Source of the DNA: Archilochus colubris
Taxonomy: Eukaryota; Chordata; Aves; Apodiformes; Trochilidae
Reading direction: 5' to 3'
Assembly (NCBI GenBank): GCA_023079485.1
Contig: CM041084.1
Location: forward strand, 124,472,292-124,536,291
Length of the DNA stretch: 64,000 nucleotides
Part shown: one piece after another, positions 5,501 through 61,300 of the stretch
Layout of the letters: every line of letters starts with the position of its first letter
Numbering within the stretch: position 1 is the first letter of the stretch
Notes under the pieces: model-generated
Seen by the model: only the letters and a program-made list of their open reading frames with translations
Told to the model about the DNA's origin: nothing
The model's database searches: none
Translations under genes and position numbers: made by a program

Positions 5501-5830
5501 CGGCACCAACCCCTTTCCCCTCACCAGGCCTTCCCAGCCCAGTCCCGGGAGTGCTCCCTTCCCCGCATCCCCCCAGGACCGGCACAGCTGTGGACCCACG
5601 CCAGATCCCTTGCGCTGCCCCACGCCGAGATCACCCTCTGCACCCCCCCTCTCTGATCCCCTCTGCCCCCGTCCCCTGGTTCAGGGCTGAGCCGCCGGGA
5701 GGTCGGAGGGGGCTGGGGGCGGCCGTCGTGTGCCGGGGGCTCCTGACAGCGGGCGGTGCGAGGCAGCGCGGATCCCCACGCCCCCGGCGGTCGGGGCCCC
5801 GCCGTCCCTCCCGTCCCGCCAGCGGCGGGG

Positions 5831-5862
5831 AAGGGCATGGAGTTGGCGGGAGTCTATAAAAA
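5831..5862 (+). promoter_or_regulatory. CA3: CA3 core promoter block with TATA box
   Basis: TATAAAAA lies at 5855-5862, 82 bp before the ATG, which places the expected transcription start near 5885. The 32 bp ending in this TATA box match the CA2 promoter at 58221-58252 at 30 of 32 positions. The block begins aagggcatggagttggc. Confidence 0.8.
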
Positions 5863-5936: not shown

Positions 5937-5982
5937 ATGATCAACCCCAACTACTACCCCTGGGGCTACGACAGCGACAACG
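5937..5982 (+). CDS. CA3: CA3 coding exon 1
   Basis: The exon encodes 15 residues starting MINPNYYP and leading into the family motif WGYDSDN. It ends after the first base of a Gly codon (phase 1), followed by the donor gtgagt. CA2-type proteins start MSHHWGY, so this N-terminus is four residues longer. No other in-frame ATG gives a shorter family-like start. Confidence 0.9.
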
Positions 5983-8900
5983 GTGAGTGGGGGCAATGGG
6001 TCACGGCCCAGCCCGGCCCGGCCCGGCCCGGCCCGGTTGCTCTGCTGGCAGCATCGTGGGTGCAAAACCCAGGGAGAACCGGAGCCCCCGCGTCCTGAGT
6101 GTGCGTGAGGAGGGGGAACACGGGGCCCAGGCGCGGCTGTGTGGTCGCCACTCGCAGGTGTGGCAGAGGTGGAGCTGGTGGAAGGAGAGGCCGTGGCAAA
6201 GGTCTCTAAGTTAAATAATGGCAGCCTTTCTGCTGGTGGTGTATTTTAAATTTTGAGGTATCTTTAAAATCCAGCTTTAGGTTAGCCCTTGATGCCAGAG
6301 CAGTGCACGACTGTAGCACAGCCACCATCCCTCCTGCCTACTCATTACTGTGTTCAGTTGATGTTCTGTAGCTAAGCAAAGCCAAGCTTTCATTTGTTGT
6401 GACACAAGTATAATTCATGCTTAGCTTGAAGAGATTTTCATTATATTTCACTGTATTTTTTTCTAGGACCAGATCAGTGGCACAAAAATTACCCATTTGC
6501 CAAAGGACGGCACCAGTCACCTATTGAAATCAATAATGACGATGTGCATTACGATAGCTCCCTACTACCATGGTTTGCTAGTTATGATCCTGGTGCAGCT
6601 AAGACCATCCTCAATAATGGGAAAACCTGCAGGGTTGTATTTGATGATTCTTTCGACAGATCAGGTTAGTTTTGGTTTTATCTTAAGGTGATACTATATG
6701 CCAGTGACTGTTTCTCCAGTTGTTTGGAAGACAGTGTGCTCTGAATGCTAATGGCTGTTAGAAGGTCTCTGTGCAGTCTTTGCATGACATACAGGTTTCT
6801 GTGACAACTGGTAGGAAAGGCTTGGGACTACTTTAAAGTCCATAGATAAAATTTTAGGGAATGGGGAGAGCTGCAAAGAGGCTTGTTGCAGAATGAATGA
6901 AGCTGTAAGGTGAATTTCTGAGCTTGCAAAAGCCATTGCAGGTGTACTGCTTTCTAGGAACAAGGCATCCAGGCTTTATCTATGAGGAGCAAATTCCATT
7001 CAAACTATTTGAGATGCCTAGTAGAACATCTTTAACTGTGTATATGGCTGAAGTTGGAATGTTTGAAAACTACCCCGACAAAACTGTACTTTTTATAAAC
7101 AGAGTAACTAACCAGATCCTACCACAAAGTCACAGTATTTAATCCATCTGTCCCTTTGACATTCATGAAATTTTATCTTAATGAGGATTAGAGGGCTGAG
7201 AAATTCCAGTGTTTTGGTTTTAATTATATAACAGTAATGGGCTTGATTATAAGCTTGGGTAAGTTATAACAAAGCTGGGCTGCATCAAAAGAAGTGTAGC
7301 CAGCAGGTCAAGGGAAGTGATTTTCCCCCTCTAGTCTGCTCTTACGAGACCCCACCTGGAATAATGTGTCCAGTTCTGGAGTCCCTAACAGAGGAATAAC
7401 ATGGAGTTGTTGGAGCAGGTCCAGAGGAGACCCACAAAGGTGATCAGAGGTCTGGAACACCTTTTCTATTTAGACAGACTGAGAGAGCTGGGATTGTTCA
7501 GCCTGGAGAAGAGAGGGCTCTGGGGACACCCTATAGCAGCCTTCCAGTACCTGAAGGGGGCCTACAGGAAAGCTGGGCAGGTACTTTTTATAAGGGCATG
7601 TAGTGAAAGGACAAAAGTTTAAGCTGAATGAGGGTAGATTTAGATTAGATACTTGGAAAAAATTCTTTACTGTGAGGGTGGTGAGGCATTGGAACAGGCT
7701 GCCCAGGGAAGTTATGGCTGCCCCCTCCCTGGAAGTGTTCAAGGCCAGGCTGGATGGGGCTTTGAGCAACCTGGTCTGGTGGAAGCTGTCCCTGCCCATG
7801 CAATGGGGTTGGATCTATAGGCGTTGGATCTATATTAAGGTCCCTTCTGGCGCAAACCAAAATGGCAACATGCAATATGCTGCATTTATAATGCATAGCT
7901 TTTAAGAGTTAATGGGTTATATATTTTGAAGAGATATATCTGTTCCATTTAGCAGGTGCTGGAAGTATTTAGTTTGTGTTGGCAGAACTGCTCACATTTC
8001 ATGTCAATGCTGTTGGCTATATTCCCTTGGAAAAATGATTGAAAGAAGTATGAAATTGCATTAGTACTGCAGTAAAAGAAAAAATAAAATGCATATCTCA
8101 GTATTTGTTGTTGTATCAAGGTCAGCAGAATTGTGTTATTATTTATGGGACATTAAGAGAAGGAAGAAGAAACATCAATTTCAGTAAAATATTGAAAATT
8201 CTGTCTTCCACAGGGTAAAGACTCCATTCTTAACTGCATTAGAAGTTCCAAATTCTATTACTACTACTATTCTATTACTACAAGGAATTTTACTAATAGG
8301 TTGATTGATCTTAAATATCTGTGGGCATGGATTTCATTTAATGGATTTTTAATGAATCTCGTGGGTTTCATGAAAACCGAGGACCAAGTTGCATGTGAAC
8401 TATACTAGTTAAGACACTATCAAAACTCACAAATGACTTTGCAGTCAAGACTTTGATTAGTTTTCTAGCAAAATGGGAATCTTTAATGTTATTTGAATAA
8501 AAAATGTTACTAATGTCAGATAACACAATGTATCAGTAAAGAGGTATGGCATATGAGAAGACCTCCACGGTCATTACTTCGCATTTTTTACCATCTTTTG
8601 TATTTATTCGAATAGCATCAAATATATCAATGGTTGCATCTTCTGCATAAACATCAAAGTAATGTTTTTTTATCATTAATCAGATTTTGCACATGAGGGA
8701 GTATCAAGGCACAGCAATCTGCATTGCATGGGTGCAACACAGTGGCCACATAGAGCAGAAAGTTTTGGAATGTTCTGAATTATTTTTCAGATTAACTGCT
8801 CAGTAACTGCTGTGTTCTGATCTCAGAACTAAAAAGTGACTCACTGGAAAAAAAGTAGGTGTACTTCACAACTCTTTGAAGGCAAGAGACAGTCAGTGTT

Positions 8901-58009: not shown

Positions 58010-58220
58010 AAGGAGAGTCGCGGACCGCTCCCCCACCCCCCTCCCCGCCCTGCCTGTGTCCGCCCCGCGCTGCCCGGCTGCCGGGGGCGCTGCCGGACGG
58101 GCCCGCCGCAGCTCCGCGGCCGCGGCTGATCGCGGATTATAAGGGACCGCTCTCTCCGCCCCTTACGGAGTCTCCCTCCGCCCCTGTCCGCGTTTCCCAC
58201 CCCTTTCTTCGGCCGTGGAG

Positions 58221-58252
58221 AAGGGCATGGAGTTGGCTGGAGCCTATAAAAA
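58221..58252 (+). promoter_or_regulatory. CA2: CA2 core promoter block with TATA box
   Basis: TATAAAAA lies at 58245-58252, 74 bp before the CA2 ATG. The 32-bp block is the near-identical partner of the CA3 block at 5831-5862, with mismatches only at two positions. The expected transcription start is near 58275. Confidence 0.82.
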
Positions 58253-58318: not shown

Positions 58319-58352
58319 ATGTCCCACCACTGGGGTTACGGCAGCCACGACG
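58319..58352 (+). CDS. CA2: CA2 coding exon 1
   Basis: The exon encodes 11 residues, [11 protein letters not shown], plus the first base of a Gly codon, followed by the donor gtgagt. It is the standard CA2 N-terminus with its histidine cluster. Confidence 0.95.
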
Positions 58353-61300
58353 GTGAGTGCCCGGAGGGTGCCCGGGGGTGCCCCGAGAGTGCCCGGGGCT
58401 GCCCCGAGGGTGCGGGGCTCCGGCGCGGTGCGAGACACCTGCCGGCAGGTCCCCGGGAACAGCGCCCGGGACGTGCCCGCTGCGCCTCGCAGAGCCTCTG
58501 CCCTGAGCAGGCGGTTTTTAATTTTCTTTTATTTCTCTTTGCTCTTTATAATTTTGTTTTAACCTTGAAATGCCTCCTGCGCCCGAGCAGGCAGCCGGGC
58601 GCGCCGCGCTGTTTGCCTGGAGCATCTTCTGGTTTCTTAATGTCATTCCTTTACTTCGGTACCGGCGCAAGGACGAGGGGAGGACGGAGTACTGCTCCAA
58701 GCAGGACGGGCTGGTGGCCTCTCTAAGGACTCCTTGGTAAAACCTCAGCCTCCAGGGCTCGAGGGCTGCCGGGTCACTGCCGTGGTCCCCAGATGGGATT
58801 TCCCCTGATCAGTGTTACAAGCACCGGCAGCCCGCAGATGTGGTACATTATTAAAGGCTGATGCTAGTGTTGAAACCTCGCGGTTTGCTAGAGTGAGGGT
58901 TATCATTTATATCCTCCCTCAGCTCGTGTCTTTTCCCACTGAGCTTTTTCACGCTGTCTTGCAGGACCCGCTCACTGGCACGAGCACTTTCCCATCGCCA
59001 ATGGAGAGCGCCAGTCCCCTATTGACATTAGCACCAAGTCCGCCAAGTACGACTCCTCTCTGAAGCCTCTCAGCTTCACTTACGATGCCGGCACGGCAAG
59101 AAACATTGTCAACAACGGGCACTCCTTCAACGTGGAGTTTGATGATTCTTCCGACAAGTCAGGTGAGACCTCAGCTTCGTGGAGATGGGAGAAGCTGCTA
59201 CTAATACTGCTATCCACAGAGGCAAAAAAATAACAAGTGTTTTGTTTTCAGTAAGGTCAGGATTCAGCCCTTAAGGAATTGCTGTCCTTCTCAGCTCCTT
59301 TAGACTAGAAGAAAACTGAGCTCTGATTAAAAGAAAGCTCAGCCTATCTGGGCAGTTTTGAAGTGCCCTGCTCTAAACCCCAGAAGTTCAGTTGCCTTAT
59401 TTTTGTTTAAATTGGAAGGATTTGGATAAAGGTTAAGTCGTAAGAAAAAAAAAAAAGTATTATTTACAAGAACAATTTTAGGCATAGTTCATGATAAGAT
59501 ACTCACCAGATGGTGAAAAAAGGTAAAATACCTTACAGTAAGAAATGTGCTTTAGTATAGCAAAGGGTTACAGTTAACAACTTGGAAGTGGAAATAGTTT
59601 GGAAATAGTTTCTTTGGTTATCAAAATATTATTCATATTTCTGAAGCCAGTATGCTCCCAGGTTAGTACTGAAACAGAAAAATTATTAGAAAATACCTCT
59701 CTTTTGTAATTTAAACAAGTATTATCCCTAACATTTCTAGACATTGGGCTTTCTAGAGAAAGTGAATATACGTGACACATTCCTATACAAAGTTTGGTAT
59801 CAGGAAAGTTGTTCTAATAGCGTGTTAGTGTTCAGCATACTATATGGTGAAATTCAGTACTGATTCCTGAAAACCTTCCAGTAATCCTTCCTGAAAGAAA
59901 TCCAGTATTGATGGACGGATGGAATCCAAGCCACAGTTGCAACAAGGATTTTGTAGGCTGCCTTTAGTTGCAGTTTTTCAGCTGTCCGAATTTGCGAAAA
60001 TCATTACCCTGCTACAATGAATGTGGCTCTATTTTTAATTTAGACAGCAAAAACAATCCCATTGTAAGTCACTGTCTTTTCTAGACACTGCCTGATTTAA
60101 CTTGCTTGAGCAAGTGCCCTGTTTTTCCCAAGCGTTTCGTTGGCAATGTCATTTCAGGGATGGTGCTGAAAACAAATGATCCATGCCTACTAAAAATGTG
60201 GGGCTTTTGCATATAATGTAATGCAATATTATAACAGATATTCAGCATTGTTCTAAGAATTCAGCTTTGTGTTTTAATTGCATTCTGTCTGTTGAACAAT
60301 ATGTGGTCAGCTGCAAGTGTTCACAGTCTTATAAATACTTAGGTCCAAGTATAATTTACACAGAACATCCCCATTAACATTTGTATGGCTTAAAAAATAT
60401 GGAAAATGTATTCTGACTTCTTAGTGTTTATTTTTCTGAAGCACTGAGGAGCTGAATGCATGTTCATTTTGTCAGTGTCATGGGGAATAAGGTAAATGAT
60501 TCAGAGTACAGTATAAATGTTTTCACCAGGTATGTGCCCGTCAGATCTTGCTGTTATCGGGCTCTCGCTGAGCCCAAAGGAGATAGGTTCAGGTCCTCAC
60601 AGTATAACAAAACTACTGTGTGTTCACTTTGTGGCTGCACAAGTTTGGGAAGACTGTGAAAATTAGGTTGTATTTGGTAGCTTGGGAGGAAAAACCAGTA
60701 AGAACATAAAACTGAAAATGTCTGTAGGAAGAATGATTTTTATGAGAAAAGTTGGTGCAGAACCAGAACATCTGTGACAGGGATCCTCTGACAGATATGC
60801 AGTGACACAGCTTTCAGAGTGGGAGGATAGGAGATGGAAGTAGAAATATTCTCAGTAGCTGCATTAGTGAATCAGAAACTGATTATTCTTCAGAAAAAAA
60901 CCCAACATTAAGCAGCTCTCTGTGAAGCCAGGTAAGGGTGGATCCTTCAGTATCACACTTCCTGTTGGAAATTACTGTGCCTAGAATCTACCTGGTGGCA
61001 TGCTTAGTGGCTTCATTTGTATGCAGCTAACTGGGTAACCTACTTTCGAAACACAAAATAGAGCTGTCTTTGACTTAACCGTGCTTGATTCACTCCTATT
61101 TCTGAACTCTGTGCACTAAATTCGTGGTTAGACATCACTGAACTGTCACGAGAAGAAACTATGTGAAATTATGTGCTGTGCTGATGTATTTTGCAGAAGA
61201 CAATGGAATAAAATCCTGTAAGTACTTCCCACAGGTGTGCTCCTGTGAGCTGTCCCCTATGCAGTAATGAATTACCTGTGATAGGAGGCACAGAATGAAG

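What the first reader, a model, noticed from the sequence alone, without database searches (positions are those of the whole stretch)
5831..5862. CA3 and CA2 share a near-identical 32-bp core promoter block
The 32 bp ending in TATAAAAA upstream of CA3 (5831-5862) match 58221-58252 upstream of CA2 at 30 of 32 positions. Both begin aagggcatggagttggc-like and sit 74-82 bp before their ATGs. The flanking promoter and 5' UTR DNA do not align well by eye, and the proteins are clearly diverged paralogues. Either strong selection has held an unusual extended core promoter element since the tandem duplication, or gene conversion has copied it. The 5' half (agggcatggagttgg) is not a core element I recognise.
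Basis: partly seen in the sequence, partly recalled or inferred. Interest (0 to 1): 0.8.

Follow-up and report, generated by a model that had tools for sequence, protein, structure and literature searches.

The report
Shared hormone-response promoter block, CA3 and CA2
Two neighbouring bird carbonic anhydrase genes carry an almost identical 33-letter stretch just before their start points; its unrecognised half looks like the vitamin D switch already described in the chicken CA2 gene, here seen at CA3 too.

Summary
5830-5862 (CA3) and 58220-58252 (CA2) agree at 31 of 33 positions, against at most 24 of 33 in 1000 shuffles. Neutral CA2/CA3 sequence is saturated: exon-2 third codon positions agree at 27 of 66. 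Flanks drop to background at once. Gene names are right.

A vitamin D response element (VDRE) in the chicken CA2 proximal promoter is published (Quelo 1998; I saw only its title, in PMC3637238). I recall its letters as AGGGCAtggAGTTCG, 14 of 15 the same, unverified. So the block is most likely VDRE + 8-bp linker + TATA box, kept since the duplication. Both differences lie in the linker (P 0.053).

Selection is favoured over gene conversion, not proven: no other vertebrate DNA could be searched, and 12 tries at the window's own genome did not complete. I found no report of the element in CA3, in openly licensed papers only.

The parts
5830..5862 (+). CA3 copy of the shared block (33 bp, 31 identical to the CA2 copy)
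5832..5846 (+). CA3 DR3 site AGGGCA-TGG-AGTTGG, probable vitamin D response element
   Evidence: 10 of 12 to RGKTSA n3 RGKTSA (consensus from PMC4010781); identical to the CA2 copy
5847..5854 (+). CA3 linker CGGGAGTC; holds both differences, at 5848 and 5853
5855..5862 (+). CA3 TATA box TATAAAAA, first base 82 bp before the ATG
5937..5982 (+). CA3 coding part of exon 1 (donor GT at 5983, edge read by eye)
   Evidence: protein
58220..58252 (+). CA2 copy of the shared block
58222..58236 (+). CA2 DR3 site AGGGCA-TGG-AGTTGG, probably the counterpart of the published chicken CA-II VDRE
   Evidence: existence of the chicken element from a reference title in PMC3637238; letters recalled
58237..58244 (+). 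CA2 linker CTGGAGCC
58245..58252 (+). CA2 TATA box TATAAAAA, first base 74 bp before the ATG
58319..58352 (+). CA2 coding part of exon 1 (donor GT at 58353, edge read by eye)
   Evidence: protein

Best explanation
The block is a two-part promoter module that both genes inherited from the common ancestor of CA2 and CA3 and that purifying selection has held. Its first part is a DR3 nuclear-receptor site bound by VDR-RXR, possibly also by thyroid hormone receptor or relatives. Its second part is a TATA box at a fixed distance of 8 bp. Ligand-bound receptor next to TFIID would change transcription from the TATA-set start, so that CA2 and CA3 both answer to calcitriol. Shown here: the identity, the DR3 match, the saturation of neutral sites, the sharp edges. 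From a cited title: a VDRE lies in the proximal promoter of chicken CA2. Recalled: its letters. Inferred: receptor binding and response at CA3, and selection as the cause of the identity.
For: 31 of 33 against a shuffle maximum of 24, with neutral identity 27 of 66 at third positions and 7 of 16 at four-fold sites. In the block DR3 is the only spacing of 0-6 at which both half-sites reach 5 of 6. DR3 15 of 15 identical, TATAAAAA 8 of 8, linker 6 of 8; both differences in the linker (P 0.053). Both copies share the same two departures from RGKTSA, which speaks for common descent and not convergence. A VDRE of the chicken CA-II proximal promoter is cited in PMC3637238, which also reports CA2 induction by calcitriol in human breast samples (passages). 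v-ErbA is said to act on CAII by occluding the T3R response element (PMC2194726, passages). Red-cell CA-II and CA-III of chickens both differ by sex and correlate with laying rate at 16-63 weeks (PMC3060127; PMC3247080; passages).
Against: The DR3 alone is weak: 102 sites as good in the window on both strands, 0.32 per 200 bp, and a better-scoring DR3 (11 of 12) lies on the minus strand at 5631-5645, 306 bp before the CA3 ATG. A degenerate VDRE and a TATA box do not explain why 11 of 13 positions that neither needs, and 6 of 6 two-fold positions, are also identical (P 0.0017 for 11 of 13 at 41%, 0.011 at 50%). The linker placement has P 0.053 only. PMC3637238 says that CA2 induction in osteoclast progenitors seemed indirect. 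After a forced moult chicken red-cell CA-III fell while CA-II did not change, and plasma CA-III did not follow laying. No orthologue was seen.
Confidence: 0.6

Rival explanations
1. Gene conversion copied a short tract between the CA3 and CA2 promoters in this bird's lineage, so the identity is recent and says little about selection.
For: Positions that neither a VDRE nor a TATA box needs are also identical, 11 of 13; the genes are tandem, same strand, 52 kb apart.
Against: The tract would be only 33-39 bp and would begin and end at the edges of two functional motifs; the flanks are at background on both sides (15 of 30, 4 of 15).
Confidence: 0.25
2. Selection holds the block, but for a factor other than VDR-RXR: another nuclear receptor (T3R, RAR, COUP-TF) or an unknown protein over the whole 33 bp.
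For: The T3R/v-ErbA action on chicken CAII (PMC2194726, passages). The constraint covers more positions than a VDRE needs.
Against: Spacing 3 is the spacing that PMC4010781 gives for VDR-RXR, and spacings 4 and 5 fit poorly from 5832 (second half 3 and 2 of 6). A chicken CA-II VDRE is on record (title).
Confidence: 0.13
3. Chance likeness of two TATA promoters of similar GC-rich composition.
For: TATA boxes recur, and both 700-bp regions are GC-rich (71% and 74%).
Against: 31 of 33 against at most 24 in 1000 shuffles. Among 79 TATAAA sites in the window, those other than the two in the block share at most 11 of 18 upstream letters at any spacing of 0-24. In 108 viral and prokaryote contigs with the first 17 bases, at most 8 of the next 13 specified letters agree.
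Confidence: 0.01

Closest known systems
[quoted passage not shown] title seen as reference 49 of PMC3637238; paper not held)
   Same: Same gene, proximal promoter, DR3 layout; 14 of 15 letters the same as I recall the element.
   Different: One letter differs from the recalled sequence (unverified); here the same 15 letters also stand before CA3.
DR3-type VDREs in general (RGKTSA n3 RGKTSA; PMC4010781; PMC6332450; passages)
   Same: Two direct half-sites with spacing 3, each 5 of 6. A published table of human candidate VDREs holds one with half-sites AGGGCA and AGTTCG (PUS3, PMC3604145).
   Different: Immediately upstream of a TATA box with a fixed 8-bp linker, and all 15 letters shared by two paralogues.
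TFIIB recognition element upstream of TATA, BREu (SSRCGCC, recalled)
   Same: The seven bases before TATAAAAA fit at 5 of 7 in each gene (counted by eye).
   Different: Weak fit, and it does not cover the 5' half of the block.

Membership tests
DR3-type vitamin D response element | Two RGKTSA-like half-sites as direct repeats with 3 bp between | tested here: met
   5 of 6 and 5 of 6, spacing 3, both copies; each half has one departure, and sites as good are common (102 in the window)
DR3-type vitamin D response element | Binds VDR-RXR | not testable with these tools
   needs gel shift or ChIP
DR3-type vitamin D response element | Calcitriol response that depends on the site | not testable with these tools
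   for chicken CA2 a VDRE is claimed in a title; for CA3 nothing was found in the searches
Chicken CA-II VDRE (same element) | Same letters at the same place in CA2 | tested here: inconclusive
   14 of 15 against letters that I recall; the paper is not held and no held paper has the string
TATA core promoter | TATAAA-type box upstream of the coding start | tested here: met
   TATAAAAA 82 and 74 bp before the ATGs
TATA core promoter | Transcription start about 30 bp downstream | not testable with these tools
   no CAGE or RACE data
Gene-conversion tract | Block sequences cluster by species, not by gene | not testable with these tools
   no vertebrate DNA collection; the window's own genome did not answer (12 tries)

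The most novel reading that the evidence does not exclude
VDRE, linker and TATA box form one rigid composite core promoter in which receptor and TFIID together touch the whole 33 bp. That would explain why even the spacer and most of the linker are kept between paralogues whose neutral sites are saturated, and it would couple CA3, a muscle-type enzyme, to the calcium hormone together with CA2, for instance in laying hens.
Probability: 0.2. Interest if true: 0.6.

Novelty: new member of a known kind. Interest (0 to 1): 0.42.

Why it matters
If right, a hormone-response element known from one gene (chicken CA2) was present before CA2 and CA3 split and has been kept in both. That predicts calcitriol control of CA3, and it offers a natural pair for asking how a receptor site fixed 8 bp from a TATA box works.

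Tried and rejected
Chance was rejected by shuffles, and a repeat family by the copy count in the window. Exact 17-base matches in viral and prokaryote collections (7 and 101 contigs) are taken as chance: at most 8 of the next 13 specified letters agree. E2F, NF1, Myb, p53 and KLF readings of the 5' half were weighed from memory and dropped for poor fit; no tool scored them.

Ten paper searches were made. The 1998 VDRE paper is not held, and no held paper has the recalled 15 letters in one string. (AGGGCATGG) matched 292 papers, 40 listed, none opened. One search found 4 papers with both recalled hexamers and 'VDRE'; only PMC3604145 was opened, and its passage does not name carbonic anhydrase. 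PMC6771766 holds the hexamers in primers. PMC8537632 and PMC2330062 were looked at in passages and gave no promoter sequence. Searches on CA3 with thyroid hormone, vitamin D or a shared promoter gave nothing on this point. Not used: the search for homologous proteins and structure prediction, which do not bear on a promoter.

Full report
Observation. The two stretches agree at 30 of 32 positions as stated, and at 31 of 33 with the preceding base (5830-5862, 58220-58252). blastn on 700-bp regions gives 35 of 39 with E 3e-11. In 1000 dinucleotide shuffles of the two 250-bp upstream regions the best 33-mer reached 24 at most. There is no third copy in the window: the next best is 20 of 31 specified positions, and of 79 TATAAA sites those outside the block share at most 11 of 18 upstream letters.

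Genes. CA3 exons read from the window, without exon 5, are closest to CA III among solved structures (best E 2.6e-107; first CA II 1e-85). CA2 exons 1-2 (77 residues) are closest to CA II. The finding's gene names stand.

How surprising. In exon 2 the paralogues agree at 27 of 66 third codon positions, 7 of 16 four-fold sites and 33 of 66 residues, so neutral sites are saturated. In register with the block, the 30 bp upstream agree at 15 of 30 and the 15 bp downstream at 4 of 15; letting the flanks slide by up to 15 does not lift any of four 30-bp flank pieces above 16 of 30. The identity needs selection or recent copying.

What the 5' half is. AGGGCA-TGG-AGTTGG is a direct repeat of nuclear-receptor half-sites with spacing 3, each half 5 of 6 to RGKTSA (consensus in a passage of PMC4010781). 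[quoted passage not shown] I recall its sequence as AGGGCAtggAGTTCG; this could not be checked. If the recall is right, the CA2 site here is that element with one change. The DR3 match alone would prove little: 102 sites as good occur in the window, 0.32 per 200 bp on both strands, and an 11-of-12 DR3 lies on the minus strand at 5631-5645.

Layout. Two bases (2 of 2 identical), DR3 (15 of 15), linker (6 of 8), TATAAAAA (8 of 8). Both differences lie in the linker, P 0.053. Both copies share the same two departures from the consensus, which points to common descent. Against a simple VDRE reading, 11 of 13 positions that neither motif needs agree (P 0.0017 at 41% neutral identity, 0.011 at 50%), and 6 of 6 two-fold positions agree. 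Either more proteins touch the block, or a short conversion took place.

Physiology. PMC3637238 reports CA2 induction by calcitriol in human breast samples, and its discussion calls CA2 induction apparently direct in myelomonocytic cells but indirect in osteoclast progenitors (passages). PMC2194726 states that v-ErbA acts on CAII by occluding the T3R response element and binds several domains of the promoter up to 600 bp (passages). In chickens red-cell CA-II and CA-III both differ by sex and correlate with laying rate at 16-63 weeks (passages). After a forced moult CA-III fell and CA-II did not change; plasma CA-III did not follow laying; the authors give no evidence for a hormone acting on CA-III synthesis. 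This fits shared hormonal control in part and speaks against it in part.

Verdict. Most likely a VDRE-linker-TATA module kept in both genes since the duplication (0.6); conversion 0.25; selection for another factor 0.13; chance 0.01. For CA2 the element is known; for CA3 I found no report, which rests on the ten paper searches listed in Tried and rejected, in openly licensed PubMed Central papers only.

Limits. No vertebrate collection is on hand, and the window's own genome could not be reached (12 tries). CA1 and CA13 promoters and all orthologues are therefore uncompared.

Noticed in passing
58136-58145: A second TATA-like stretch, ATTATAAGGG, lies about 110 bp upstream of the CA2 TATA box; a possible alternative start.
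   Followed up: no
5937-5982: The CA3 protein begins MINPNYYPWGYDSDN, about four residues longer before the conserved WGY than the CA III chains of solved structures (alignment 8-155 against 4-151).
   Followed up: no
5631-5645: A better-scoring DR3 (11 of 12 to RGKTSA) on the minus strand, 306 bp before the CA3 ATG.
   Followed up: no
7764 (-), 34639 (-), 55839 (+): Three similar translated fragments (LPL-Q-AQSPI) that look like CR1 LINE ends, as recalled from bird genomes; not checked against a repeat library.
   Followed up: no
19100-58200: Simple motif scans showed no convincing carbonic anhydrase exon in the 39 kb between CA3 and CA2; CA1 and CA13 were not found in the window, but the scan was not exhaustive.
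   Followed up: partly
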